From assembly GCA_963565915.1 (NCBI GenBank), contig OY751488.1:1984001-2048000 (forward strand): 64,000 bases of DNA, written 5' to 3'. The notes beneath the pieces are model-generated. The model had not been told where the DNA came from. It saw only the letters and a program-made list of their open reading frames with translations, and made no database searches. A program made the translations under genes and the position numbers. This document shows positions 8,071-47,434 of this stretch, one piece after another (the first letter of the stretch is position 1; each line of letters begins with the position of its first letter). This DNA is from Entoloma clypeatum. Its lineage: Eukaryota > Basidiomycota > Agaricomycetes > Agaricales > Entolomataceae.

Positions 8071-9357
8071 TTATCGTGGACGTGATAGATTTTGCCGATG
8101 AAAATCTCGGATCAAATTTTGAGCGTTCTGAACATTAGTCCGAGGTTCCCACATGTTCTCTTCTGGGCCATACCCTTCCCATTGGACAAGGTACTGGATC
8201 TTTCCACAGAATTTCCGAGAGTCCAGGATCGTGGAGACATGGTATTCTTCTCGTCCTTCAACGATGATCGGATCAGGGGCTGGCTTCTTTTTCTGAATGG
8301 CATACTTCAGGGTTTCGTATGGCGATAACAGGGTCTCATTGAACACAGGGTGGATCATCTTCCAGGTTTTGGGAAGATCAAGATGGTATGCGCTAGCTCC
8401 TTTCTTCTCTAGAACTTTGAATGGTCCATGTCGGAGGGCGTCAAGTTTCTTTGAGGGACGATCAGTCCTGATGTTAGTCCCTTCCAGCCACACCTTGTCT
8501 CCGATGCGGTAATTCCAAGATGGGCTTCGTCGTGTATCAACTGTCTTCTTCATCTGATCCTGGGCCTGTTTCAGTGCTGCGTTGGCTTCTTCTCGTGCCT
8601 GTTTGAGTTTTTTCAAGAAGTCGTTTGCCGCTGGATTGGTGTCTTCCAACACAAGTTCTCCCTTCCAAGGATGCAGACCGTAGTTGAGATAGAATGGTGT
8701 GTACTTTGTCGCTTGATGTTCTTTGTCATTGTACTGGAATTCTGCGATTGCGATCCATTCCGCCCAATCATCTTGTAGATGGTTGACAAAGTTTCGTAAG
8801 AACACCTTGGTTTCCTGATGTGATCGTTCGGCTTGTCCATCAGTTTGTGGATGGTACACAGTGGACAGGTTTCTCTTGACTCCCAACATGCGGCAAAGTA
8901 TCTCCATGAACTTCGCGGCGAACTGTGGTCCTCTGTCGCTAATGATCTTCTTAGGGATCCCATGAAGCTTCCATATCTGGTCCCGATAGATCTTGGCTAA
9001 TCCTTCAGCCGATAGTTCCACGGTTGTCGGGATGAGATAAAGCATCTTTGAATGTCTGTCCGTGATGACCAGAATTGCGTTCTTCCCATCAGATTCTGGT
9101 ATCGGTCCCACGACATCAATCCCTATGTCTTCCCATGGTTGACTTGGCGCGGCGTTAGGGTGTAGAGGGGCGTGTCTCCTTTGGCGGCTGATCTTGTTAC
9201 GTTGACAGGTGTCACAACCTTTCACATACTTCTTTACGTCATGTAAGATGGTGGGCCACCAGTAGGTGCGAGTGAGGAGTTCATGTGTTCGATATTGTCC
9301 TGGATGTCCTGCCACTGGTGCGTCGTGTGCTTCAAACATCAGTTCTTGGCGCAATTG
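8071..9357 (-). pseudogene. Pol segment: integrase plus chromodomain
   Basis: The frame that ends with the stop at 8071-8073 carries the H-H-C-C zinc site (H...GHPG...H, then CDTC), the catalytic triad of a DD35E integrase (D in GIDVVGP, D in ISDRGPQF, E in QAERSHQE), a GPF/Y-like segment near RHGPFKV, and a C-terminal chromodomain (EYHVSTILD...YLVQWEGY...MWEP). Chromodomains bind modified histone tails and direct insertion in chromoviruses. The domain itself is intact, but it is joined to RNase H only through a one-base frameshift near 9355, so it cannot be made as part of one polyprotein from this copy. Confidence 0.9.
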
Positions 9358-10067
9358 TGGTCTGGTGGAACATAGACTCGTTCTCCTGCGTAGGTGATGC
9401 CATTTTCCTGCTGGTACCAGTGAGGATTCTTCTTCAGACCCTGGGCTACTTCTGTCTCCATGCGATTCGAGGCCTTGATGCGTGCGATCCATGGGTTTTC
9501 GATGGTTGTGATGTTTCCGATTTTGATGGAATCAGATGTTTCACCCCCTTCAAAGAATTGTTCCTCCGTGAACATATCCATTTGTATCACATCTTCTGAT
9601 TCCAATCGTTTCAAAAATAGCCCCTCCTTGAGCATTTGGTCGCTGTCCTGCGGCTCGAGTTCCGTCTCATACCAGGGTAAACGTGACAGGATGTCTGCTT
9701 TCGCGTTTGTCTTCCCAGGTACATGTCGCAGTTCAAAGTCATAGTCTTGTAACTTCATCTTCCAGCGCCTCTGTCGTTGGTTTAGGTCCTGAGGACGCCG
9801 GAAATACTCCAGGTTTTTGTGATCGGTTAAGATCTCGAAACGTTCCTTGGCTTCAAGTAGATAATGTCGCCAGTCCTTCAGTGCTTCCATGACTGCCAAG
9901 AGTTCCTTGTCATATATCTCGTAATTCTGTTCGGCCGCGGACATGGTCCGCGACAAGAACACGATAGGATGCCACTTGTCGTCTTGTTTCTGTGAAAGTA
10001 CCGCTCCAATCGCATAACCCGATGCATCGGTTTCGACCCTGAACTGTCCGTCCGGTTTGGGCAATGC
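9339..10067 (-). pseudogene. Pol segment: RNase H
   Basis: It follows directly, in the same frame, after an in-frame TAG that closes the reverse transcriptase part (10068-10070). RNase H acidic residues are visible in VETDASGYAIG (Asp), YDKELLAV (Glu) and ILTDHKNLEYF (Asp). Between RNase H and integrase lies the usual linker with DILSRLPW and YAGERVYVP. The frame then hits a stop at 9339, where the integrase frame takes over, showing an indel near 9355. The RNase H segment has no start codon of its own at the expected place. Confidence 0.85.
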
Positions 10068-11719
10068 CTAGACTGGTGCCGTCGTGATTGCCCGTATGAG
10101 ACCTTCAAATGCTTCTTGCGCCGCTGGTCCCCACGTGAATGCTGTATTTCCCATAAGTGTTGTGAGTGGCTTTGCGATGTTTGAGTATCCTTCAATGAAG
10201 CGTCGATAAAAATTGGCAAATCCCAGGAACCTCTGGACTTCCTTTTTTGACGTGGGTACTCGCCAGTTCCGGATTGTGTCCACCTTTTCAGTTTCCATCT
10301 CAACATGTCCTTCTCCAACAACATATCCCAATATGGGGCATTTCGTTACTTCCCAAAGACACTTCTTCTCCTTTAGGAACAGGTCATTGTCTGACAGAAT
10401 CTGCAAGATCTCTTCGGTGTTCCGGGCGAGTTCTTCCTTGGTTTTACCAATAACCACTATGTCATCCATGTAAATCACACAGATGCGCCGACGGATCTGA
10501 TCCCTGAATAGGCTGGCCATCATTCGAGAGAACGTTCCTGGGGAGTTGCAGAGACCGAAAAACATGACCAATGGTTCAAACAATCCTCGGCTGGTCAGGA
10601 AGGCGGCTTTCCATTCGTCACCCTTCTTGATCCGCACGTTATTATATCCCCACATGATGTCCATTTTGTTGAAGTAGACTGCGTCCTTCAATACATCCAA
10701 GAGGTCGTTGATGCGTGGGAGTGGGAATTTGTCCTTAACCGTGAATTTATTGACTGTGCGATAATCCTGTACCAATCGTTTGGAACCGTCTTTCTTGTTA
10801 ATGAAGAAGCAGGGTGATGCATAAGGGGATTTGGACGGTCGGATCTTTCCAGTTGCCAGGCCTTCATCGATGAATTCGTCCAGTTCTTCTTGCTCCTTTT
10901 GGGTCATAGGATACGTGTTTCCTCCTAGCTCCTTTGGTGTGTCCGGTGTAAGTTCGATGCCGTGGTCCCATTCTCTTTCCTTTGGGATCTTGTCAAAGTT
11001 TTCTTTTTCAAAGAGATGGGCAAAATGTTCAATGTATGAGGGTCGTTTGGTTGTGGGAGGTGGTGTGGGAGTAACTGCTTCCAATATGGGGTCTCCGGGC
11101 TTCCATTTCTGATCCGATTTCTTGGGCGCGTCCTTGTCTCGTACTTCCACCATGTGAATCCGATGTTTGCGACCATTAAGGTTAACCCTGAAATCCGAGT
11201 GTTTGGTTTGACATGTTGATGGGCACCGGTTGAATGTTACAGCGCCGGTCGTCCAATTGATTGTGGGGTTGTGGTGCACCAACCAGTCATGTCCCAAAAG
11301 CATGTCCGTTCTCCCAATGTCCAATACCATTGCCTCCATGGTTTCCTGGTGTGTTCCCAAGTCCAGCTTGACTTCGGCAAGTTTTTCTGCTTTCTGTTGT
11401 CGGTTCGGTGATCCATCCGCATTTAGGATTGATATGGGCTTTATTCCACGTGTGGGAAGGTTCTGTTCACGTACTATTCTGGGATGGATACATGTGCGTT
11501 CACATCCGCTATCGACCTCGGGTCGAATGGCCTTTGGTCCTCATCGTGTTTTGATCTGAGCTTGCAGCTTGATCTCTCGTCGTTTCGGAGGTTTATCTCC
11601 CTTGACAATCTTAGTTGACGCAACGGCTCGCTTTGCAGGGATAACATAAGTTATATTGTCTGTAACTGCACCAGGCAAGCGAGTTCGTTTAATGGATAAG
11701 GGTCGCGACTTAGCGTCGT
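10068..11719 (-). pseudogene. Pol segment: protease and reverse transcriptase
   Basis: The pol frame opens just upstream of the gag stop, in the -1 frame relative to gag, with about 30 nt of overlap. An aspartic protease motif VDSG lies at 11507-11515, preceded by an in-frame TGA at 11541-11543. Further on come the RT signatures: SPYASPCFF, DYRTVNKFTVKDKFPLPRI, a partly changed catalytic loop region (KMDIMWGYNN, where FDLRSGYHQ-like residues are usual), FFGLCNSPGTF, and the active site YMDD at 10461-10472. The segment ends at an in-frame TAG (10068-10070) in the RT/RNase H connection. Arg-to-stop and similar single-base changes explain the nonsense codons. The catalytic Asp residues are present, so the damage is recent. 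Confidence 0.85.
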
Positions 11720-12586
11720 TTAATCGGACCCTTCGGGAAAATCCTTCTCATCGGTCTCTATGGTGATGGTTTCATCATCATTGGTATCTCCATCAGACAC
11801 CTTCCTAATCTTTCCAGAGTTCTTCTTCGGCTTGCGGCAGTTGCGCGCGATATGTCCTTCTTGGTCGCAGTTGAAACACTTACGACCATCTTTCTTCTTT
11901 GGGGCTTTGCAGTCTTTGGCAAGGTGACCAAAGCGCTGACAGTTGTAGCAACGGGCTACTCCTGCTTTGTCGATCTCCATGGCTTTGCCTTGACCACCAT
12001 AAGTGGTGCCCGATCCGGTGCATGTGTCGCCACCCCCTCGGATGACTAATGCATGTCCCTCCATCTGTCGTCCCTTGTTTCGGATCTCCTTTGCGTAATC
12101 AGCGTACGTCTTGCCATCGCTAGCCACTTGTTCAGAAATTCTGCGGTTGACGTTCTTTTCCAGGATGTATTTCCCTGTTTCTTCGCCAAGGTTTGACAGC
12201 TTCAAGAGCTCTTTGAATTCGTCCAAGAATTCATCGATGGTGCGTTTCTCCTGTTTCAGGACTTCGAGTCTCGCCTTGGCCGCTGCCGACTTGTTGGCAA
12301 TAGAGAATCGCGTAGCGATGTCGTCTGAGAACCCTAACCAGGTGATGTTCTCGCCATCGGTGGCAAGGTCGTCTAACTTGTTGCTGGCCCAGTGTTTACC
12401 GGACCCTTCCATCATGCGGGATAACACCGCAAGAATTTTCTGATCGTCGGACAGGCCCTTCTGGAACCTGATGTATAATTTGGTGGCTTTCCACCACTCG
12501 TTGAAGGTGTGTCTGTCTTTGAACATCCCAGGATCTTTGATGGTCTTGGATGTATCCATTGTTTGTACTGTCGGTGCTTCTGCCAT
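11720..12586 (-). CDS. Gag polyprotein of the chromovirus
   Basis: A 288-codon frame starting at an ATG at 12586. The first ~150 residues match the capsid-like region of Ty3 Gag (FKDRHTFNEWW, then helical segments ending in EFLDEFKELL). Two CCHC zinc knuckles follow near residues 215-255 (CYNCQRFGHLAKDC and CFNCDQEGHIARNC), which bind the element's RNA, then an acidic tail. The frame is open for some 120 codons upstream of this ATG, as far as a stop at about 12962, with coding-like Gln/Glu-rich sequence, so the true N-terminus may be longer. Pol lies in the -1 frame behind it; a classic slippery heptamer is not obvious, only an imperfect GATTTTCCC near 11735. Confidence 0.9.
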   Translation of the reverse strand: MAEAPTVQTMDTSKTIKDPGMFKDRHTFNEWWKATKLYIRFQKGLSDDQKILAVLSRMMEGSGKHWASNKLDDLATDGENITWLGFSDDIATRFSIANKSAAAKARLEVLKQEKRTIDEFLDEFKELLKLSNLGEETGKYILEKNVNRRISEQVASDGKTYADYAKEIRNKGRQMEGHALVIRGGGDTCTGSGTTYGGQGKAMEIDKAGVARCYNCQRFGHLAKDCKAPKKKDGRKCFNCDQEGHIARNCRKPKKNSGKIRKVSDGDTNDDETITIETDEKDFPEGSD

Positions 12587-12588
12587 GT

Positions 12589-13362
12589 CTAGAACCTGCG
12601 AAGTAGGAGAGGTGTCAGATTGTTGGGATGAAGATGGGGTTCGGGATACAGGTAGGGGTTGAAAATCAGTCCCTGTTCTAGGCGTCTGTTCGGTATCTGA
12701 CTGCGCGGAGTCAAAAGTAAATTCGTCAGGGGACTCGTCGGCGGAATCAGTGGCAAAATGTTCGGGGTATTTCCTCTGTAGATCTCTAAGGAATCTCTGT
12801 TCCTGTGCGTCTGTTGGTCGCGAGAAGGGGTCAAGTCTCTCGTTTCGTGCCCAACGGTTGTACTCGGTCTGTTGCTCGTCGGTGGTGAAGTGGGCGTAGA
12901 TCTGCTGCTTCGAGTAAGACGTGGTGATGTGGCTCTGGGACGTCTCGATGTGAGCGTCCTAATCAATCTTCTGATAACGGTTGTCTGGACACCGATAAAC
13001 TCTCTGATCTCTGTGATCCGACCTGTCTGAGGTCCTTCTTGAACGCGAAAGCTTTCGAGTTCATTCTGTCGGGCTTTGTAACACGCGATCTGGTGTTGCT
13101 GAGCAAGATGGATGCTCTCTGCTATCTCGCCGTGGGGGCGATGCTCGTCGTTGTCTAGTTCTTCGTCAAGCACCTGCTGTAGGATGCGACGGATCTCCAA
13201 TTCGATGTACTGCTGGATGAGTGTAAAATCGATACTGTCTCGAGGACTTAGCTCCTCCTGTCGGGCTTCTGGCGTGCTGAATGGGTTACTGGTGAAGTCT
13301 TCAAAGAAGCGCGATGTCTTGACTCGTCTGGTAGTTGCTCTCTTCGCTCTGGGCGAACCTAA
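12589..13362 (-). other. Chromovirus leader with decayed gag N-terminal extension
   Basis: Between the primer-binding site and the gag ATG, one minus-strand frame is open from just after the PBS to 12589 without any usable ATG; it reads like a charged helical protein (for example ILQQVLDEELDNDEH). From about 12960 to 12587 the frame used by gag also becomes coding-like and runs into gag. A single indel near 12905-12960 would join them. This copy therefore seems to have lost both the start codon and the frame of a longer Gag, or it uses a non-ATG start. Confidence 0.5.
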
Positions 13363-15705: not shown

Positions 15706-18517
15706 TCAAGCATTAGCCACCCTCCTCCTCACCAGCGGCTTTCCCTTCTTCCTCTTCTTCCCCTGCTCAAACGCATTCGCAAGCTTGAGATCGCGCCCCA
15801 GCGTGTCGTCTTTTTTGACTTCATAAATTCGCACCTATGATTCCGAACACAATCAATCAGTCAACAATCCAAACGAAAGAGGAGGAAACAAGGAAGACGA
15901 GAAAACGAGGAAAGACAAGAAAAGAAAACCCACAATCCAATTCTCCGACGTGAACGCTTCCTCCAAATAATCCAACCCCGGCCCCACCTTGGGCAGCTCC
16001 TGCCCTCTCACCCGATCCTGCGGCTTCCCACCCCCAAACAGCTCTGCAAACCTATAATAGCTCAGCTTATACATCAGACTCTCCCTCATCGCCTTGCTCG
16101 CCCGCTCATCGACCCTGTACTCCCCCTGCGGCGTGAAATAATTCGCCTCCTGGATCTCCTCAGGCCACACGCCCTGTGCGATGCGGACCATCCACAAAAA
16201 CTTGTTGATGTCGTCGCCCGAGTACCCGATGAGCCCGCCAAAGATGACGAGCACGTGCGTCACGTCGTGTTTGCGCAGGATGGGGTAGGCGATCTCTTCA
16301 GGCGAGGACATGGCTTTGCCGACGGTCGCGATGTGCGCTGTTGGATGTCGTCGTTTTGCGTTAGTTCAGCGACAAGAGAAATATAAAAAAAGAAACTGAC
16401 TGTTATTCCATGTATTGTTATCAACCAACGTCGCCCGATCCGCCATGCCCGCAATCTGGTACCCATAGTCCCACCAGCTCATCACCACCGCGTCCTCCTT
16501 CGTGTTCTGCCTCAACCAATAATACGCCTCCCGGAAGTCATCGATGATGTGCTGGCTCCCGTCTGGGTTCGTCGACGCCAGCACGACAGAGGGTGACGAG
16601 TACGACGACGAGGTGACGTAGGTGCAGTGGAAGACAAAGAAGGCGAGGAGGAAGAGTGTGTTGAAGATGACGATGATACGTGTGTCGAGACCGTAGATGC
16701 CTCCTTTGGTGGGGGTGGTGCCCTCTTTGCTGGCTGCTATGAGATTACCAAGCGCGGAAGAGGGCTGTTCGGCCTTCTTGGCTTTTTTGGCGGGTGTGGG
16801 TGTGGCAGAACTTGCTGCGGCGACAGCCGTACTCGTCCCATTTGTCTGACCGTTGGTAACAGCAGGCGCCTCTTCTTCCTCCACGTCTGGCTCTACAGGG
16901 TCTATATACGTGTCCAGCAGCGTCGATACCGCAATCGCCGCAGTCACACACACGACCGGCGTCAGCGTGAGCATCAATCGCACCATCACGCCGGCAAAGT
17001 AGCTCGCCACGACGGCATATATGATCACAAACAGGTGCTCGTCCCGGAGCTGGCGGAAGCAGAGGAACACGCCGGCGGGGAAGAGGAAAATGAGGAGCTG
17101 GAGGTCCATGAAGAACGACGGCCAGGCAGTGGGCTGGTGCTCCGAGACGGAGGCGATGATGGGGATGTACTTTTTGGCGTAGCCGGTGTCCCAGAGGGAG
17201 TAGAAGCGGCCGGTCCAGGGCGCGATCCAGCCTTTGTAGGTGAGCCCGGTGAAGGCGACGAAGCCGAGAAGGCCGATGGTGATGACGGCATAGAAGAGAA
17301 GGTTTTGGAATTGTTGGGAGGAGACGTGGGAGCGGACGAGTTGGGCGAATGCGACGATTTGGAGGAGACCGAATACGCCTGTGTGGGTGATTGAATTTCT
17401 GGTGGGGAGGGGGGTTGGGTTTAGATGGCACTTACCAAGGGCAGCCATGTGCTCGCTGGTTTTGACAGGTTGGAAACCGACAAAGGGGACTTGCATACTT
17501 GCGAGAGTGCCGATGGCGTACCATGAAGAGTAGGCGACGTAAAGGCGACTGGTGAATCGGCCCATGAGGATGAGAACCAAGGCGTGGAGAGGGATCATGT
17601 TAGTGATGAAAGCATAACCACCTGGGCAAGATTAGTAAGAACGAGAGACTACAGCGTGTAACGCACCCCAAGCAGCGACCATGTAGAAGTAGAATACAGC
17701 AGCGATGGTACCGTAGAGGGCGCTGCCAAGCTTGAGAGCCTTGATCCAGGCGTAGAAGGTAAACATGAGGAGGAAGATGGCGATGGCCTCGTTGTCGTAG
17801 GAGCCAGCGACGGAACGGGAGATGTAGCCTGGTGCGATGCCGATAAATGCAGCAGCGAGGAGCCCGGCGCTGGAGTCTTTCATTTCTTTTGTGAACCTGG
17901 AGGGAAAAATAAGTGAGAAGAAACGAAGCAAGGATGAGAAGACGGACATGTAGGTTGCCCAGGCGGTGAGGGCGCTGAAGGCGGGGGCGAGGAGGACACA
18001 GACATTGCGGATGTCAACGGGGAGGTTGACGGCGTGAAGGAGGTTGTAAATGACGCCGCTGGTGGCCATGAGCCCGGGGTAGACGGTTCCACCGACGACG
18101 CGGCCGAGAGGATACCATGCGGTGGGGTCGAACCAGTTCCAGAATTCCTGGAGGTGAGGGTGAGCAGGGCTGGAGATACGGACAGGAAAGTGAATCACGA
18201 ACATAGAAACCTTTTGAAGCGAGAACTCGTGTTGCGCGACTTAAACCACAAATCAGTAACAATAGCGGAAACGACGAGCTGCTCTTACTAGTTGAACCAT
18301 GGGTCGCTGTAGGTAGTGGTTAGCGGGGGAAGCGTCAAGACGTCAAGAAAACACACAATTCATGGATGATACTTTCAAAGTTGACGACGGCAAAGAGACG
18401 GGATGCGATTGCGGCACCAGAAATGAGGGAGAGAGTGACAATGCGGACCAGCGACGCGGTGTTGGCCACCGTGGCTGGTGAGAGATTCGTAGGGAGCGGG
18501 TACGCCGTCGTTGGCAT
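15706..18517 (-). CDS. STT3: Oligosaccharyltransferase catalytic subunit STT3
   Basis: A multi-exon minus-strand gene encoding the membrane enzyme that moves the dolichol-linked glycan onto Asn in N-X-S/T sites in the ER lumen. Family signatures: HEFDPWFNYR near residue 53 (metal-binding Asp), [29 protein letters not shown], eleven or so hydrophobic helices, and the catalytic-domain motif WWDYG ([11 protein letters not shown]) before DNNTWNN. The C-terminal luminal domain ends with a Lys/Arg-rich tail. The first exon (18357-18517) is followed by an 18 nt microexon (18289-18306) and a 37 nt exon (18203-18239); omitting the microexon would delete the DPWFN motif. An Ala/Thr/Pro-rich insert of about 60 residues precedes the catalytic domain and looks disordered. 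The start is the only ATG that gives the typical N-terminus. It is divergent from the carboxylesterase, with 87 bp between starts. Confidence 0.95.
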
Positions 18518-25650: not shown

Positions 25651-26209
25651 TCATACAACATTCAGCGTGAGGTTATGGAACTCAAGTATGGGACTAGGCC
25701 CGGCCTGAGTAGAAGTGCATTAGCGACGGAGGACATGCTGGAAGGTACACGAACGACATACGCCGATGAGGTGGAAACGAGAGACACTGAGTTGCGCCGC
25801 CCCGTTGAAATAATCTGCATCAGGGACCTTGACTGTAAAGTTCTGGTACGGCTGTTGGGTCAATTCGTGTCGCACGGGGTTGTAGCGCCCCGCGAAGAGG
25901 ACGGCACCCAATTCCGCTGAAGGTGGGGGGCAAGGGTTGGGTCCGGGACAGGAAAGAAGTCCGATGGCGAGGCCGACTTCCTGGGATCCTTGGATACTGT
26001 TCTACACGACGTGCCAATACAAATTATTCATGTGTTTGAAGTGAGTTGAAGGGACGAGATGTGCATACCGGACGAATGACTTGGACGACAAAGTGTTTAC
26101 CTCTATGGACTGTGGCACCTGGCGCAGGATAGCCTATATAACTGCTTTGGCCGATGACAGGAGTGGCGAGGAGGGCCAGTGTTGAGACGATGGCAAAGGT
26201 GAGCTTCAT
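25651..26209 (-). CDS. Small secreted protein, 144 aa (paralogue of the gene at 61258)
   Basis: Three exons, 26069-26209, 25762-26001 and 25651-25704, both introns in phase 0. A 20-residue signal peptide (MKLTF...PVIG) is followed by a domain of about 120 residues: YIGYPAPGATVHRG near the start, VVQVIRP, IQGSQEVGLAIGLLSCP, YNPVRHE, PYQNFTVKVPD, a regular run of beta-like strands and the end LEFHNLTLNV. The gene at 61258 has the same exon pattern, the same product length and the same motifs, so the two are paralogues about 35 kb apart. The pattern of alternating polar and hydrophobic residues suggests a beta-sandwich; two cysteines lie in the middle. It is likely extracellular or cell-wall associated. 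The family is not known to me. Confidence 0.8.
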
Positions 26210-27321: not shown

Positions 27322-28378
27322 TTAATCCACCTTCCGAGCCCATTTTCTGCTACTGCTGGCGGACGATGTGCGCGGTGGCGGGGTGGCCACACGGTGAGTT
27401 GGGGATGCTTTCCATGGGGCAGGGGCATATGCGGCGGGAGAGACTATCTCTCTTTCCTTGAGCTCGACGTCTGAAGCGTAGGTGGCATCCGAGGCCTCAT
27501 ATTTATCTTTCGTCAAGTCTTTCTCTCCTTTGCCCCAGTACATCCATAGTTGTACCCCCAACACAATATTCAGGAGCAACGCGAGTACAAAGCCTGCAGC
27601 AACTATGCTGTCGCCTGTTTCTGTTGCATTTGTGAAGAGCCTCGCTGCGCAGCCAGCAATTTGTGCCACAACGGCGATTGTGGAGAGCTGGCCTGTGGAT
27701 TGGGAGCGGGCATTTTGTCGAATTTGAGGCAGCTTGGAGAAGAGCGACAATGGGAGGGTGGCTAATTGGAGGAGAGATAGAGTGTCGGGTGGAAGAGTGT
27801 AAAGAACGACGGAAGAAACGATCGTGGCGATGACTCCCGTTAGCAGTTTTGTGCCCTTGGGGGAAGAGGTTGGCGCATATAGTAAGATGAGGAATGTGAT
27901 TATGACGTTTTGAATTGTCAGGAAAAGGTTCTCTCCATATGTTGAGAAGGGAAATTCATTCCGGAAGGAATAGACGAGTGTGATCGCATAAGAGAGTGTC
28001 TCTAGAACATATGCAGGCAGCGAGAGGCCGCGTGCTGAACGTCCATTGACGACTGCATAACATTAGGGTCAACGAGATTTTTCTTTTTCATCGAAGCAAC
28101 TCGGAGAAATTCACAAACTCACTTAGAAGAAGTTGTGGTATTTTCATTATGGAACCTCCAGCAACAATTCCGATTCCAAGTCCTTTCGACAAGGAATATC
28201 GGATACATTTGACATCGGTGACGTTCAGATTTTCAATGAGTGACGTGTAACATTCCTGGAGAAACATGTCAGTTAGGATGATACTAATAGATAGATGAGT
28301 TTTTCGACATACCTGCCCCACTATTGAGATGCCAAGGTCTCGAATGAACCAGGGAAGATTGCGAGTGATGGTGGTCAT
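27322..28378 (-). CDS. MPDU1-like PQ-loop membrane protein (dolichol-mannose utilisation)
   Basis: Exons read from the ATG at 28378 to the TAA at 27322. Features: an N-terminal helix-rich part ending DVKCIRYSLSKGLGIGIVAGGSIMKIPQLLL (first PQ-loop, with IPQ), GLSLPAYVLETLSYAITLVYSFRNEFPFSTYGE, four further hydrophobic helices, a second PQ motif in KLPQIRQNARSQSTGQLS, and a charged cytosolic tail of about 60 residues. This matches the seven-helix MPDU1/Lec35 family of the ER membrane, which is needed for normal use of dolichol-phosphate mannose and glucose in glycan assembly. It complements STT3 elsewhere in the window functionally, without being adjacent. At least two introns fall in the first third. 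The exact join after IPQLLL was not fully resolved. Confidence 0.85.
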
Positions 28379-30673: not shown

Positions 30674-33600
30674 ATGTCAGTGCCTCTAGCTTTCCTTGGT
30701 ACACCCCCGATCGCGATAGGGGCGGCTGTTTCACTCGGGGAAGCGATTGCTGCACGAATAGCGGACGCCAGCAAAGTCGCCACCCTTCTTGACTGCCTTT
30801 GCACCACGTTGGCACCCGCAATCCATTCACCTGACCCATCGCGACCTCCGCTATCCCACCATGATCTTCAGATATTTGTATCGCGGTTTTCCTTGCCGTA
30901 TTCAACTAGCAGCCGGCTGGGTCCAAATGACCGGGTGATGCTCGTCTTGGAGAGCGGTCCCGAAAATGCTTTGGCCCTTATAGCAATTGCCAGCTACCAT
31001 ACTTGCGCGCCGATCAATGCCAACTGCACGGCTTCCGAGCTGAGAGACGACGTGCAAAGGCTCAGAGCAAAAGCCATCGTCACAACACGGGCTGTCGAGG
31101 AACGACTCAATCTCTCGAGAGTAGGAGATGAGCTAGGGTGTCAGATTATCTATGTCGAACCCCGCGCCTCAGGTCCTGCGGGAATATTTGACATGAAACC
31201 TATGGGCGACAAAAACGTCGCGTCCTCTCCTTCCTACTCTCCTTCACAGCCTCACACTCCTTCACAACCTCACACTCTTTCCGACACCTCCCTTGTACTA
31301 CATACTTCTGGCACTAGTGGCAAGAAGAAAGTCGTGCGATACTCTTTGCGATCTTTACTGATCGGGACTTGGTCTGTGGTGGAATCATGGGGCCTTAAAC
31401 CAACGGACGTCAACTGTGCGTAAATTTTGTCTCCTTTTTTGCGTATCGTATGATTCTGAGGAAACGTCACAGTTAATATGATGCCTCTTTTCCACATCGG
31501 CGGTATCGTGCGGAATTTATTCGGCCCCGTACTATCCGGCGGGAGTGCTATCATGTGCTCGGAGTGTGACCCAATCGCCTTTTGGAACATTGCGACAAAT
31601 TTGCGTGCAACCTGGTCAGCATTTTTGGCGGTTTTGGGAAATAAATGTTGATTTCTGTATAGGTATTACGCTGCACCTACGATCCATCAGGCCATCATCT
31701 CGTCGAAGCCACGGAATGAAGATTTACCTGGAGATATCCACATCAGGATGGTCTGCAATGCTGCTGGGGCGCTACTACCTTCCCTTGCCGTCCAACTGAA
31801 GAATTTATTCAATGATGCCATTGTCTTGCCATCGTACGGAATGACGGAGTAAGTCGGTCGGACCAGATGTATTCAGAGTATTGATGTGATTTTGTAGATG
31901 CATGCCCATTGCTTCACCGCCGCTGGACTACAACCTTGATCGACCAGGCTGCTCTGGCATGGCCTGTGGGCCTCATCTCTCGATACGCGGCCCTATGAAT
32001 CTAGAGCAAGAGCTGCCACACGATATTATAGGTGCAATATGTGTACGAGGAGCACCTACTTTCGAAGGATATGAAGTCTCGCCTGACATGGATATACCCC
32101 TCGATAAATCTGCGTTTACGAGCGGAGGATGGTTTGACTCGGGCGATATGGGCTTCATTGATGCAGACGGGTAATTCTATTGAACCTGGATCCACAATGG
32201 CATTTGACAAGCTTACCTCTCGCCTGTTCAATAGTTATCTTTTCATCACTGGGCGTTCGAAGGAGATTATAAACAAGGGTGGGGAAGTTATTTCTCCGTT
32301 TGAAATTGAAGAAGCCATTATCATTGCTGCCAAGGACTACGTCCAGGTATTTTCTCTTCTTTGTCGACAACCTGCCCGTTTCGCTCAAATATATCCAGAG
32401 TGCCTTGGCGTTTTCCATAGACCATGATGTATTGCAAGAAACCATCGGTGTCGTTCTCGTTCCGACACCAAATCGACCTCGACTGAGTCTTTCACAAATG
32501 CAGAAGTTACTCAGGTAAGTTCACAGTATCATTTTGATCATGTCTCTTATTTTGTATTGTCAGGAACCACCTTCATCCTTCGAAATGGCCTTTTGCGGTC
32601 GTGTACATGGATAGTTTACCAAAGAACAGGTGAATGCAATGCCCAATCGACTTCTCCGGTTACTGACACACATTGAAGCGCCGGAAAGCCTTTACGCATC
32701 AAGCTAGCATCGCGCTTAGGCATTGGGTGCCTGTCAGACAATGTGCCTATCTTGCACAGACACTTCGAAGCAGAGACACCGCCTGCTATGGTATCGATGG
32801 CGGAATCCATCTCTTGTCGACCAGTCACGGTCGATGAAGAAGAGATTGAACGCGTCCTGAGTTCCACCACTGGAATCAAGGAGTTCGCTTTACGTCTGAA
32901 CCTTGATGGTATTCCCGAAGCTCTAGTGTTCGTAGGTGGTGAATCAGATTTCGAGTCTGGTCACCTCGAGGATGCTATCAGCCTGCAACTCCCGGGGTAC
33001 TGTGTCCCAGAGCTGCACCGCTTGTCGAGACCTCTATCCGTACGTGGAGAGGAATTCGACTTCGATTCCGTCAAGAGGGAAATTTCGTGGCAACATTCTT
33101 CGGCCTTGTCAGAGACAGGAAAGCTCGTGTCTGAAATTATCGCCAATCTCCTACACATAGACTCCGTGAACATCTCCGGCGAGTCCGATTTCTTTTTACT
33201 GGGCGGAAACTCTCTGCGTCTCGGTCAGCTTTCGTTCAATTTGCGCAAGCAGACCGGCGTCAATGTCGCGATCCCTGCTCTTTTCCGAAATAGCACAATC
33301 CAAGGAATCGCTTCCTTGATCGACGAAGCGATGGCGCAGACTCCTACAACCGTGCACCCGTTTCCTGTCAAGGGCCTATCCCCTCTGTCGTCCGAGTCCA
33401 CCCTTCAAGGTGTCGACGGGTATCACACTATGGGCGCGCGCAATCAAACAAATTTGCTTTGCATGATAATTCAGGCGATACCACACTTATTTTTCTATCC
33501 TATGAAGGCGGCCTTCAGCTGTGCGTATCACTGTTGTCAAGTATGGAGAAATTTACTTACTGGACAAATCTAGGGACGTTGATGCTACTTGTTCTGTCAT

Positions 33601-36213
33601 ATCTCGCACCCATCGTTGATCACAGTTATCCGAGACGCTTAGCTTCCCTTGTTGTGGCAATTTTGGCAGCCAGAGTTGGCAGAGGCACTGTATGCCCTCT
33701 GGTTGCAATAATGTTCAAATGGATCGTTATTGGTCGATACCAGGTTGGGACATATCAGATGTACGCATCGATCCTTTGCTATATATTCCTTGGATATTAA
33801 TTCCTGTGCTTCTCAGGTGGTCAACATACCATCTACGATGGTGGATCGTTGATAAAGCCCTCAGGTATCAGCTCGACGTCCTACTTACCAAGCACAACTT
33901 ACTCTCTCCTAGGTCTGCGGGAAAGGGCATCTTCCAATCACACCCCTCGCTCAACGTTCTATACTTTAAAATGCTCGGTGCTCATATCGGAAACAATGTT
34001 CTGATCAGTGACAGAACTGAACTTGGAGAGCTCGATCTGCTCACCCTTGGTGATGGTTGTCGGATAGACCATTCAATCATTCGGGGTTTTTGCGTCGAGA
34101 GAGAAGGACTTTTCAGTCTTGATAGAGTGACAATTGGACGCGAGGCTGTCATCAATACTTACACCAACATCGCCCCGGGTGCTACGATCCCCGACGCAGC
34201 CGTCTATGGACCTCACGCGTCTTCATATGACGATCCATCTCCTCCAAGTTACGCTGCGTTCAATGAACTATCCATCCGTCAACCCCACGTGCTGCTTCAA
34301 GTTTTCGTAGCTTGGCCTGTCATTTCTTTGGTGTATATTGTTTCTCGTGGGTCATTGTCCCCTCGAAATTGGAATGAAATCTGACCCGGCTTAGGTTTAC
34401 CATGGGTCGCTGTTCTCTTCTTAATGTTCACCGACAACTATCTGAAGAGCCCAGGACTGAACGGACTAGAAGCAGTCATCTTGTGGTTCTCGTCAATTGA
34501 ACGTGTGGCTTTTCACGTCTTGTCGAAAATCGTCCAAGCCACAGTCATTCCTGTATTCCATCTATTCCTGGCAATTTTGGTCAAAAGGGCGTTCGGGCTC
34601 AACACAGAATGTCCTTCAGAAGACGCCACTCAACTATCACTTCTGCGACGTTACATTAATTATATCCTTCTGTCTCAACTGGCACAGAAAGAAGCCTTCA
34701 TGATTCTAGGAAGCCATTATGAAGTCGTATCTGTACGGACACATTCCATTCGTTTGACTTGCGTTTGACACACTCTCCTTTCCTCAGATGGTTTTCAGGG
34801 CTATGGGAGCCAAAGTAGGCAAAAGGATATATTGGCCGGGCTCGGGCATCTATTGCCTCGACCCCGAGATGCTAGAGATTGGCGACGACGTTGTGTTTGG
34901 GTCGCGTGCTGAGCTGTTCACTACGGATCAAATTGGCACGAGAAAGATTGTCATTGGCGATGGCGGTGGGTTGAAAAGGCTACACGTGATGTCGCGTCTG
35001 ACTTTTCGTCTAGCCATGGTCGCTGACCGCGTGGTGGCGCTTCCCGGTACACGGATTGGAAGAAGAACAGTCATGGGGACTGGAGCTCTTTGCAAGCGTG
35101 ATACGACATATGGAGACGGGGAAACCTGGATTGGGAATGGTATGACCCCGCACCGTGACATTATTCGAGATGCTAACGTTTTCGAAAAGAACATGGAGAA
35201 GCCGTTTTTCTGAGCAAGAAACCAATGGAGAAATCCTATGCCAACGATTCTACATTGACTCCTTTCGGCAAAGCCTTCTATCTAGGACAAGCAGATTATT
35301 TCGTCCTCCCATACTTCTTCCTTCTGATTATTGCTCTGATGAGCGCTGCTATATCGGCAGCCTTCTGGTCACTCAAGGCTATCTCTACAGCGCAGCTGCT
35401 TCATCTGCTTTACATTCATTGCCGACATCTTTTCAAGCCATGCTGGTATCGCCCAGCAGTCCTGTACGGACTGGTGGCCTCTTTCTTCATCGTTATCTTC
35501 GCCTTGCAAGCTTTTTTTTCCATTCTGTGGGTGATCGCGACCAAGTGGGCGATTATCGGTCAAAGAACAGAAGGGCGTTTCGATTGGGACAAGAGCGATT
35601 ACTGTCAACGCTGGCAGTTACACCTCTCTTTGACGCAATTCATCAACGAAGGCGGCGGAGCGGGAGGTGTCCTTCCACCCCTGACCGGTTCTATATATTT
35701 CACCTGGTACCTTCGTGCTATGGGCGCGAAGATTGGGAAGAATTGTGGTATCTTCGCTGGAGGGAAAGTTGGGTTGATCACAGAGCCTGATCTCGTTGAG
35801 GTATGTGGGCCTATACCATAAAAATGGGTTATGACACTCATGTATTGATGGACAGGTCGGCGACAATGTAAACATCGATGATTGTTCTGTGGTAGCGCAT
35901 ATCAATTCCCGAGGCAAATTCTCTCTTAATCGTCTCAAGATGGGGAACGGGTAGGTTTTTACTTGGCAATATCAAATAAATATATATTAACATCCTGTTC
36001 GTCAGGTCTGCCATGCGAACTGGATCCAGACTCCTTTCCGGAGCATCGATGGAAGATAGCAGTATGCTCCTTGAACACTCGTTGCTCACATCCGGGGAGG
36101 TCGCGGACGCTGGTGCCGTTTACAGTGGATGGCCAGCCAGACAGGTGACCGGTATCCACCGGCCTGGAGAGAAATCGCGAACCAGCTCTGCGAGAGCATC
36201 GACCGTCGGCTGA
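30674..36213 (+). CDS. Pls/PosA-like single-module synthetase: A domain, carrier domain, three membrane-linked beta-helix domains
   Basis: About 17 exons giving roughly 1,570 residues. Order: an adenylate-forming domain (residues about 1-600) with LHTSGTSGKKK (P-loop A3), PLFHIGG (A4), LPSYGMTE (A5), GGWFDSGDMGFID (A7), GRSKEIINKGGEVISPFEIEEA (A8) and PKNSAGKPLRIKLA (A10 Lys); a linker resembling a degenerate second A C-terminal subdomain; a carrier domain with DFFLLGGNSL (phosphopantetheine Ser near residue 720); then three repeats of membrane helices plus a left-handed beta-helix (hexapeptide) domain, at about residues 905-1050, 1165-1270 and 1420-1530. Each beta-helix begins with (M/A)xGA(H/K)(I/V)G. 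This is the architecture of bacterial epsilon-poly-lysine synthetase, in which membrane-tied C-terminal domains join monomers on the carrier. The A domain, however, has acyl-CoA-synthetase-like signatures. All splice joins tested keep frame. The substrate is unknown. Confidence 0.85.
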
Positions 36214-43683: not shown

Positions 43684-45243
43684 TGTCGCTTGATAATTTA
43701 CAGGATGCTCATGTGCGAGAGGCTGCGCACTTTGGGTGTGGTGGGTCTTCCCCTGCCAGGACGACATCAAATGCCCTCAACGACCTTCCTGAACTGAAGC
43801 TCCCAAGGCTGGCCTCCCTGGTGATCGTTCTCGTTACGAACTCTTTGCTTCAGGTATGTTATCCCCATTGCGATGGTGCGGCACCAGCGCCTCCAAAAAA
43901 ATACGGAATACTAAGAATAACTGGTCTTGCAGGTTTCTTTCTTCATCGTCGTTTCATCGTCGAATGACTATGCCGTACACCTAGGCGGAACCTCGACATT
44001 CTCAGGTATTGTCATTGGAATTCCAACCTTATTCTCTGGTCTGGCACTACTGCCTTTATCAAAATTTGACAGAGGTCAGTCGCTCATTCCCCCAATCGGT
44101 GCTAATACAGAGTTTGCCTCCTCCATAGGCGGCTACAAGTTGCCTCTACACGTTAGCTGCGGCTCGGCCATTTTAGGACACGTCCTCTACGGTCTCGCCT
44201 ACAGGGCAAACTACCTCTACCTCATCCTCATCGGGCGCATCGTAAGCGGTTTCTCCTTCTCCTTCTGGATGTACTGCAAACGTTACTGCTCTGACCCCCG
44301 CATCGTTGGTGTCCGCCGACGCACGACGCTCGCAGGCTGGCTTGTCATGGGCCAAGCGCTCGGAATGAGCCTCGGGCCCTTCGCTGGTGGACTCTTGTAT
44401 AAAGTCGGATTTGGAAACGAAATTTTCAACGGGTACACAAGCCCGGCGTGGATCATGGCTGCAGTTTGGTGTGTGTTCTGGGTGTGCGTGGCTGTTTGGT
44501 TCGAGGATGTATCCGTAGAGCAGGGGCCCTTTGATTCCCCTTCTGTCGCAGCTGCACGGGCGAGCACCGGCCTTCGGAATAATGAATGGTCTTCTACCGA
44601 GCTTATGGCAATGCCTCCGCCAGCTCCTGTGACCCCGATCAGGTGTCGGATGTCCCACAGACAATGGGGCTTGGTGGTATGCATGTGTTGGTTCGCCATG
44701 ACCTGTTTCTTCATCCTCGGCGCCTGGGAATCCAACCTTCCAGTCTTTGGCGCATCGGCATCGCAGTTCCACTGGTCGCCGTTCGCTGCAGGCAACTTCA
44801 TCGCATTAGGGGCAGTTACAGCCTTTCCCTTCCTCATCATCAACATTCTGTTCGCGCGGCGAATACAGGACCGCCAGATCCTTGCTCTCGGTACGGGCCT
44901 GGGGTCCGTGGCGTTGCTGGTGTTTTTAGCACTGTTGAAGACGCAGAGGGTGAGTTATGGCAACATGCTGGTGTGCTGGTGGGCGATAGCGTTGGGTTTC
45001 AATATGGCGAGCACGGTGACGGTCAGCACGCTGAGCAAACTGTTGCCACCGTCGTGGAATGGCAGGACATCGTTGGCAGTTCAGTATAGCAACTACGCAG
45101 GCCGAGTGACAGGGGCTATCTGGGGAGGAAGCGGGGTGAAAGTGGGCATGTTGAATTGCATCGGACTTGAGATTGCGCTGGTAGGTGTCGGTTGTGTCCT
45201 TTTCACGGGCTTGATCCGGGACCTCAAGACAAAACAGGGGTAG
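43684..45243 (+). CDS. Major facilitator superfamily transporter
   Basis: Exon 1 from 43684 (MSLDNLQDAHVREAAHF) to the intron at 43855 (GTATGT...TTGCAG), exon 2 from 43933; a further intron is likely at about 44074-44128 (GTCAGT...CCATAG) because the frame also continues in phase when it is removed. About 11-12 hydrophobic helices are seen, with typical MFS spacing: LASLVIVLVTNSLLQVSFFIVV, GTSTFSGIVIGIPTLFSGLAL, an RIVSGFSFSFWMYCKRYCSD segment, RRRTTLAGWLVMGQALGMSLGPFAGG, and the second half starting at WGLVVCMCWFAMTCFF. The helix-2/3 loop signature is only partly kept. The substrate is unknown. It is convergent with the TDP2-like gene (66 bp between stops). Confidence 0.85.
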
Positions 45244-46421: not shown

Positions 46422-47434
46422 ATGGCGTCCAGAATCGCTCTCAGCTCTCTACGGGCAGCAGGTATGTTTTTCTGCCTTGAATAAACACTTTGATTGACGG
46501 AACCCTGCCAGCCCGCCCTAGAGCTGTCGCCACTCTGCCCAAATATGCGTATGTCAACCTGGCATTTTTCTACCTGAATCACGGAGGAGCTCAACATCGG
46601 ACTTGCCTACATTTCCTTCTTCTCCCTCTAGTCGAACGATGGCCTCAAATCCTCCTCCACCCTCAGAGCGTGCTTCTGAACTCATCGAGAAGTTGCCTTC
46701 GTCACCAAGCCTCATCACGAAGACTGGCACCGCTATCCTCGGAACTGGCGCCATTGCAACCGCCATCTCTCAGGAGCTCTATGTTGTCAACGAGGAGTCC
46801 ATTATTCTTATTGCTTCCATAATGTTCTTCACTTACTTCGGCAAGGCGAGCTTCCCACCCCAATCGTCAACACCCAACCTTTGTTTACCCTTGACAGATC
46901 ATCCGGGAACCCTACCGTGAGTGGGCCAACGGCAACATTGCACGTATCAAGAAGGTCCTAGACGGCGCACGTGCTGAGCATACCCAGGCCGTTCACGACC
47001 GGATTGACTCCGTCGCCCAGAAGAAGGATGTTGTCTCCCTCACCGAAGGTCTCTTCGATCTGTCCAAGGTATTTCTCCCTAGTTCAAATATGCCCTGCGC
47101 TTTTGCCAATCTTTTCATATGTGTATAGCAAACTGCGCAGCTGGAAGCTGAGACTTTCGTCCAACAACAAAAAGTCGCGTTGGCTTCCGAGATCAAGACT
47201 GTTCTGGACAGCTGGGTGCGATATGAGCAGCAGATAAAGGAGGGCGAGCGGGTGAACCTCACGAACCACATCATTGAGAAGGTGTTTGCCGACCTCAAGG
47301 ATGAAAAGATTCAGAAGGATATCATCCTCTCTGCTGTGGCCGAGGTGGAACGTAAGCTCTTCCGTTCTCTTATCTTCACGAGCATACTTGCTTATCCACG
47401 CTCGTCAGAACTTGCCAAGAGCAAAGCTATCTAG
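46422..47434 (+). CDS. ATP4: ATP synthase subunit b (subunit 4), mitochondrial
   Basis: Spliced product of about 240 residues. A mitochondrial presequence rich in Arg and Ser (MASRIALSSLRAA, then ARPRAVATLPKYA) is followed by two hydrophobic helices (ILGTGAIATAISQELYVVNEESIILIASIMFFTYFGK), the marks of subunit b of F1Fo ATP synthase, and then a long charged helix (REPYREWANGNIARIKKVL...) that forms the peripheral stalk. The C-terminus reads AEVEQLAKSKAI. Introns at 46462, 46550, 46845, 47069, 47125 and 47352 are short, with standard ends. The length agrees with fungal homologues. Confidence 0.92.

What the first reader, a model, noticed from the sequence alone, without database searches (positions are those of the whole stretch)
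30674..36213. A basidiomycete synthetase with the domain layout of epsilon-poly-lysine synthetase (Pls/PosA type)
One gene joins an adenylation domain, a carrier domain (LGGNS) and three tandem beta-helix domains, each preceded by a pair of membrane helices. To my knowledge this layout is mostly described for bacterial Pls-type enzymes that make homopolymers of an amino acid, with a fungal case reported from an ascomycete (Epichloe). The three C-terminal units start with very similar (M/A)xGA(H/K)(I/V)G motifs, showing internal repetition. All splice joins I tested preserve the frame, so the gene looks functional. It may make an unknown isopeptide- or ester-linked oligomer.
Basis: partly seen in the sequence, partly recalled or inferred. 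Interest (0 to 1): 0.88.

Follow-up and report, generated by a model that had tools for sequence, protein, structure and literature searches.

The report
Mushroom di-acid polyester synthetase with fossil domain
This gene, likely from a mushroom-forming fungus, belongs to an enzyme family found in mushrooms, moulds and chytrids whose activating part is related to oxalate- and malonate-activating ligases rather than to amino-acid activators, so the enzyme is predicted to sit in a membrane and would likely string a small acid such as malate into a polyester instead of making polylysine.

Summary
A clean 17-exon gene model (30674-36213, 1567 aa) encodes A domain, carrier (LGGNS), then three membrane-helix pairs, each followed by a beta-helix unit. 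The C-terminal half is homologous to bacterial Pls/PosA polymerases (TIGR02353, E 1.7e-45, but below the curated cut-off).

The 'epsilon-poly-lysine type' reading is half right. The A domain is not an amino-acid A domain: its nearest solved relatives are oxalyl-CoA and malonyl-CoA synthetases, the amine-binding Asp is absent, and the Glu that holds the distal amine in diamino-acid polymerases aligns with an Arg (Arg261) kept in 223 of 224 members. Between A and carrier lies a second A_sub with NRPS fold but almost no conservation. I read it as a fossil: a complete acyl-acid ligase took the place of the core of an ancestral Pls A domain.

The family spans Agaricomycetes (52-62 % identity), Ascomycota and chytrids (35-40 %). 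The first named relative outside Agaricomycetes is from Aureobasidium pullulans and fits the published polymalate synthetase in size and layout (accession not checkable here). Best reading: membrane polyester synthetase, probably for malate. Product unproven.

The parts
30674..36213 (+). whole gene, 17 exons: 30674-31415, 31473-31614, 31663-31848, 31898-32170, 32235-32346, 32399-32514, 32564-32629, 32679-33520, 33574-33760, 33817-33864, 33913-34346, 34395-34732, 34788-34965, 35014-35139, 35190-35800, 35856-35950, 36006-36213; 1567 aa
30851..32247 (+). adenylation core (residues 60-452), oxalyl-/malonyl-CoA-synthetase type
31481..31516 (+). motif MPLFHIGGIVRN (251-262): no Asp here in any of 224 members (His255, Gly257); Arg261 aligns with the distal-amine Glu of bacterial Pls A domains
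31745..31780 (+). motif RMVCNAAGALLP (323-334); the three solved oxalyl-CoA synthetases have RFIRSCSASLAP or RFIRSCSSALAP here
32248..32721 (+). the ligase's own A_sub (453-560) with Lys549 (224 of 224)
32806..33093 (+). second, fossil A_sub (about 589-684) of NRPS/Pls type, catalytic-lysine position changed, 1 of 116 columns (575-690) conserved
33112..33345 (+). carrier (T) domain 691-768; phosphopantetheine Ser724 at 33211-33213
33457..33731 (+). membrane helix pair 1 (about 806-842 and 852-879)
33971..34222 (+). beta-helix unit C1 (from MLGAHIG, residue 925)
34283..34600 (+). membrane helix pair 2 (about 1029-1062 and 1091-1118)
34800..35135 (+). beta-helix unit C2 (from AMGAKVG, residue 1167)
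35282..35557 (+). membrane helix pair 3 (about 1295-1328 and 1350-1386)
35717..36147 (+). beta-helix unit C3 (from AMGAKIG, residue 1440), with Glu1462 and His1482 (35898-35900) shared with 6 of 6 bacterial Pls

Best explanation
The gene encodes, in a predicted 17-exon model, a 1567-residue protein that likely works as a membrane-bound polyester synthetase: its ligase domain would adenylate a small dicarboxylic acid, most likely L-malate, load it on the carrier arm, and the three-part beta-helix domain would join the units by ester bonds. Shown from sequence: an acyl-acid-ligase A domain, not an amino-acid one; a carrier with its serine; a C-terminal half homologous to Pls/PosA polymerases. 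Shown by profile and predicted fold: a second, degenerate NRPS-type A_sub between A and T, best read as the scar left when a complete ligase took over from the A core of an ancestral Pls. Inferred: Arg261, at the place of the Glu that holds the distal amine in PosA, holds the distal carboxylate; His1482 of C3, shared with bacterial Pls, is the base that activates the acceptor hydroxyl; the three beta-helices form a pseudo-trimer; the product leaves through or along the six helices. Also inferred: the substrate is malate, because the family appears to include the Aureobasidium polymalate synthetase and the pocket motifs change little across the family.
For: A domain: best solved relatives are oxalyl-CoA synthetases (6qjz E 2.2e-49, 5ie0, yeast Pcs60 8aff), then malonyl-CoA synthetases. 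PosA needs Asp217 and Glu221, the latter binding the distal amine (PMC10522769, passages). In two alignments with 6 bacterial Pls A domains (hhalign 99.8 % probability, and MAFFT) the Glu falls on Arg261 (6 of 6 in MAFFT); the Asp falls on Gly257 (a single BLAST pair, puts it on His255 and the Glu again on Arg261). Over 224 members: His255, Gly257, Gly258, His303, Asn327, Ala328, Lys549, Ser724 in 224; Arg261 in 223, one gap. C half: TIGR02353 E 1.7e-45, 194-207 bits in five relatives; 33 columns shared by 61 sampled members and 6 bacterial Pls, among them Glu1462 and His1482. Fossil A_sub: profile match to Pls A_sub 97.8 %, E 1.2e-12, against 2.1 % to the protein's own A_sub; conserved columns 1 of 116 against 78 of 393 in the A core; the window's own stretch folds with pLDDT 89.9 and its Foldseek top rows are NRPS chains (6mfw E 3.4e-7). 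Polymalate link: the published synthetase is a membrane A-T-C enzyme of 5049 bp, about 1682 codons (PMC9210645; PMC11905612); the first named row outside Agaricomycetes is an Aureobasidium pullulans protein of 1690 aa, 126 member sequences, 38 % identical over 96 %. 39 of 48 pocket-motif residues are the same in it and the window, against 43 % of the whole A core.
Against: The accession of the polymalate synthetase (QHD40385.1) could not be compared: the link rests on genus, size and layout, and the A. pullulans genome paper lists five NRPS-like clusters and one non-alpha-poly-amino-acid cluster, so P0129 need not be the polymalate gene. Polymalate producers named in the papers seen are few (Aureobasidium, Penicillium cyclopium, the slime mould Physarum), while the family is in Neurospora, Fusarium, Trichoderma and many Agaricomycetes; most may make something else. 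The 48 pocket-motif positions were chosen by me and include general ANL motifs that are conserved in any case. The 224 members were picked by similarity to the query. The window copy departs from 9 near-invariant residues, more than any of 25 sampled relatives (0-7), five of them in the A core (P93E, P222R, A265G, F279C, G331A). Position 261 is Ala, Ala and Gly in the three oxalyl-CoA synthetases and Val in MatB, so an Arg clamp has no precedent among these di-acid ligases.
Confidence: 0.5

Rival explanations
1. It is a fungal epsilon-poly-lysine-type synthetase that polymerises a diamino acid through isopeptide bonds.
For: Same order of A, T and C1-C2-C3 with six predicted membrane helices; real homology of the C half. 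True diamino-acid types do occur in basidiomycetes: PMC10522769 lists a Botryobasidium botryosum protein with a diamino-like code.
Against: A domain of the acyl-CoA-synthetase type; no Asp at the amine site in 224 of 224 and Arg in place of the distal-amine Glu; no amino-acid-adenylation model among the 25 rows shown of 106, while bacterial L001 hits TIGR01733 with 418.8 bits; TIGR02353 far below cut-off.
Confidence: 0.05
2. The A domain loads one acyl group (malate or another acid) and the beta-helix part transfers it once to a membrane lipid, sugar or protein: an acyltransferase, not a polymerase.
Against: The characterised proteins with this C half that I know of or read about are polymerases (Pls, PosA, Epls), and the Aureobasidium polymalate synthetase probably is another.
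Confidence: 0.25
3. The acid is oxalate: the enzyme forms oxalyl-carrier and makes oxalyl esters or amides, tied to the oxalate metabolism of mushrooms.
For: Oxalyl-CoA synthetases are the closest solved relatives (also top for the partial A part of the P0121 model); some relatives are named Oxalate--CoA ligase or peroxisomal-coenzyme A synthetase by their annotators.
Against: Pocket motifs differ: GG for HG after the shared His, Arg261 for Ala or Gly, NAAGGLLP for SCSASLAP or SCSSALAP. A polymer of oxalate alone cannot form esters, as it has no hydroxyl.
Confidence: 0.12
4. The window copy is a diverging paralogue that has lost or changed the family's activity.
For: Nine departures from residues kept in at least 95 % of 223 relatives; 25 sampled relatives have 0-7.
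Against: Frame, splice sites, Lys549, Ser724, His255, Arg261 and His1482 are all intact.
Confidence: 0.08

Closest known systems
Aureobasidium polymalate (PMA) synthetase, A. melanogenum QHD40385.1, probably the family of P0129
   Same: Published as a transmembrane enzyme with A-like, T and C-like domains, 5049 bp. P0129 (A. pullulans, 1690 aa) aligns with the window protein over 96 % at 38 % identity, shares 39 of 48 pocket-motif residues and has a stretch at the place of the fossil A_sub.
   Different: 62 % of residues differ; P0129's identity with QHD40385.1 is inferred, not checked; the window protein is shorter; 51 of 123 Agaricomycete members have a C-terminal RING finger.
Pls/PosA family (epsilon-poly-L-lysine and delta-poly-L-ornithine synthetases; fungal Epls of Epichloe)
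   Same: T domain, six predicted membrane helices in three pairs, three tandem beta-helix units, Glu1462, His1482 and 31 further shared columns.
   Different: Different A domain, extra fossil A_sub, about 24 % identity, TIGR02353 below cut-off.
Oxalyl-CoA synthetases (yeast Pcs60, plant AAE3) and malonyl-CoA synthetase MatB
   Same: Homology of the A domain over about 490 residues.
   Different: Free CoA ligases without carrier or polymerase; different pocket motifs.
Left-handed beta-helix (hexapeptide) acyltransferases
   Same: Predicted fold of the C units (3nz2; phmmer of the window's C half 3ixc E 1.5e-7).
   Different: Usually separate soluble trimers (recalled); here three units in one chain with membrane helices.

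Membership tests
Pls/PosA cationic homo-poly-amino-acid synthetases | C-terminal half with three membrane-helix pairs and three tandem beta-helix units homologous to Pls | tested here: met
Pls/PosA cationic homo-poly-amino-acid synthetases | score above the curated TIGR02353 cut-off (423.1 bits) | tested here: not met
   155.6 bits (16-exon model); five relatives 194-207; control L001 772.6
Pls/PosA cationic homo-poly-amino-acid synthetases | amino-acid A domain with the amine-binding Asp and Glu | tested here: not met
   no Asp at either aligned position in 224 of 224 (His255, Gly257); Arg261 in place of Glu; oxalyl-CoA-synthetase type
Pls/PosA cationic homo-poly-amino-acid synthetases | carrier domain with phosphopantetheine serine | tested here: met
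   Ser724, 224 of 224
Aureobasidium-type polymalate synthetase | single-chain membrane A-T-C-like enzyme of about 1.6-1.7 thousand residues | tested here: met
   against the description in PMC9210645 and PMC11905612; the window protein has 1567
Aureobasidium-type polymalate synthetase | sequence homology to QHD40385.1 | tested here: inconclusive
   accession not held; only P0129 of the same genus, size and layout
Aureobasidium-type polymalate synthetase | activation of L-malate and release of polymalate | not testable with these tools
   needs enzyme or culture
oxalyl-CoA synthetase (Pcs60/AAE3) | homologous ANL ligase domain and A10 lysine | tested here: met
oxalyl-CoA synthetase (Pcs60/AAE3) | pocket motifs of the three solved oxalyl-CoA synthetases | tested here: not met
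left-handed beta-helix acyltransferase fold | hexapeptide beta-helix in the C units | tested here: met

The most novel reading that the evidence does not exclude
Fungi from chytrids to mushrooms carry one chimeric membrane synthetase, born when a dicarboxylate ligase took over a poly-lysine-type polymerase and left its old A_sub behind as a fossil. It makes polymalate-like polyesters, so a polymer known from a handful of microbes would be a kingdom-wide fungal product.
Probability: 0.35. Interest if true: 0.82.

Novelty: new variant of a known kind. Interest (0 to 1): 0.6.

Why it matters
If true, the poly-lysine synthetase scaffold was re-tooled in fungi from amide-linked amino acids to ester-linked acids by swapping the activating domain, with a Glu-to-Arg charge swap at the pocket, and the scar of that swap is still readable. 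It would give a single testable gene for polymalate-type polymers in genetically tractable fungi (Neurospora, Trichoderma, Schizophyllum), explain many proteins now annotated only as 'acetyl-CoA synthetase-like' or 'peroxisomal-coenzyme A synthetase', and offer a natural route to a biodegradable polyester used in nanomedicine.

Tried and rejected
A diamino-acid polymer synthetase: rejected on the A domain. A second A_sub made by duplication of the ligase's own A_sub: not favoured, profile probability 2.1 % against 97.8 % for Pls-type A_sub (the ligase's own A_sub itself matches the Pls A_sub at 94.2 %, so the method sees the common ancestry). A RING finger downstream of the window's stop: none found; three RING tails gave only weak scattered hits, best E 0.18 on the other strand inside the gene. 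A gene cluster: 50 of the 207 ORFs of 90 aa or more (count) were scanned with Pfam and none matched a phosphopantetheinyl transferase, malate or oxalate enzyme; most matched nothing, and small or spliced genes may be missed. Paralogues in the same genome: not testable. VIA-align rows for both models are filled by the ligase A_sub and carrier; only 5 of 50 rows (7en1, 7en2, 4zxh, 4r0m, 6mfw) reach into the fossil A_sub, with rmsd 6-11 over 146-159 residues, as expected of two hinged domains; the whole C domain was not tested against solved structures. Counting hydrophobic segments per relative by a plain threshold was too noisy (mostly 7-14 per protein); the alignment average was used. Papers: ten searches listed, by title and abstract, none on this Agaricomycete family; (12 papers with both 'polymalic acid' and 'basidiomycet', listing only) showed none on polymalate made by a basidiomycete. 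The original polymalate-synthetase paper is not held. Motif names A3-A10 and general statements on ANL pockets are recalled.
Full report
What is there. Between 30674 and 36213 on the + strand lies one gene of 17 exons. My first model had 16 exons. An alignment with 120 relatives showed a 16-residue stretch missing in 99 % of the set; it is a 48-base GT..AG intron at 34966-35013, and with it removed the protein is 1567 aa with no internal stop. None of the 16 joins shows an insertion or deletion against the relatives within 20 residues, and tblastn of the closest relative, P0001 from Hypsizygus marmoreus (62 % identity), gives pieces that fit the exons. In a tree of 224 family members, rooted with the 101 non-Agaricomycete ones, the window protein pairs with P0001 (support 0.998).

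The A domain is not an amino-acid activator. Against solved structures the best matches are oxalyl-CoA synthetases (6qjz, E 2.2e-49; 5ie0; yeast Pcs60, 8aff), then malonyl-CoA synthetase MatB. Against NCBIfam the best A-domain models are CoA ligases, malonyl-CoA synthase being the fourth row, all below their curated cut-offs; no amino-acid-adenylation model is among the 25 rows shown of 106. A bacterial Pls/PosA protein run as control (L001, Sphingomonas) hits TIGR01733 at 418.8 bits, above its cut-off. PosA loses activity without Asp217 or Glu221, which bind the alpha-amine and the distal amine (PMC10522769, passages). Aligned with six bacterial Pls A domains by hhalign and by MAFFT, the Asp faces Gly257 and the Glu faces Arg261 (6 of 6 in MAFFT); a single BLAST pair puts the Asp on His255 and the Glu on Arg261. 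No family member has an Asp at either place: His255 and Gly257 are in 224 of 224, Arg261 in 223 with one gap. A Glu that holds an amine has thus become an Arg that could hold a carboxylate. That role is inference.

How wide the family is. The first search gave 426 proteins at E up to 0.001, of which 120 were listed; 118 of these bear organism names, all Agaricomycetes by my knowledge of the genera. A search shaped to longer proteins gave 621, 120 listed: 19 Agaricomycete proteins at 52-58 %, then 101 others at 35-40 % over 76-98 % of the query, among them Neurospora, Fusarium, Trichoderma and three chytrid genera. Pocket motifs change little: of 48 positions that I picked, 31 are 98 % conserved over 224 members against 47 of 345 elsewhere in the A core, with the caution that general ANL motifs are included and that members were picked by similarity. 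In the solved oxalyl-CoA synthetases position 261 is Ala, Ala and Gly, and the second motif is SCSASLAP or SCSSALAP, so the acid is probably not oxalate.

The link to polymalate. The review PMC9210645 (passages) describes the Aureobasidium melanogenum polymalate synthetase as a 5049-bp gene for a membrane enzyme with adenylation, thiolation and condensation domains, and polymalate as an ester of the hydroxyl and beta-carboxyl of malate. PMC11905612 (passages) gives its accession and the A-like/T/C-like layout, and reports polymalate from a strain with a 96.5 % similar protein; that strain also has five NRPS-like clusters and one non-alpha-poly-amino-acid cluster. The first named non-Agaricomycete row is Aureobasidium pullulans P0129: 1690 aa, 126 member sequences, 38 % over 96 %. 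Size, genus and layout fit; I could not compare the accession. If it holds, the conserved pocket predicts malate as the substrate through the family, including this gene.

What stays open. No product, no expression data, no substrate test. The window copy departs from nine residues kept by at least 95 % of the others, more than any of 25 sampled relatives (0-7), so it may be a drifting copy. The genome search tool did not answer in 13 tries, so paralogues are unknown. Many Agaricomycete relatives (51 of 123) carry a C-terminal RING finger, 0 of 101 others do; its role is unknown and the window copy has none.

Noticed in passing
P0001, P0028 and others; absent from the window: 51 of 123 Agaricomycete members end in a RING-type zinc finger fused behind the polymerase domain; 0 of 101 other members have it, and the window copy lacks it although its closest relative has it.
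   Followed up: partly
8074-12958 (-): Ty3-type LTR retrotransposon ORFs: gag with zinc knuckles, protease-like/RT, RNase H, integrase with chromodomain.
   Followed up: no
16369-18240 (-): Oligosaccharyl transferase STT3 gene in at least two pieces.
   Followed up: no
43921-45240 (+): Major facilitator transporter, about 8 kb downstream of the gene.
   Followed up: no
27325-28062 (-): PQ-loop membrane protein upstream of the gene.
   Followed up: no
25723-26001 (-): Stretch resembling the Nis1 family (24.9 bits, below the cut-off of 27).
   Followed up: no
46522-46917 (+): Match to the first 32 positions of the mitochondrial ATP synthase B chain family (26.7 bits, cut-off 21.7).
   Followed up: no
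window protein residues 93, 222, 265, 279, 331, 924, 1190, 1244, 1524: Nine departures from family near-invariant residues, more than in 25 sampled relatives (0-7): sign of a diverged copy.
   Followed up: partly
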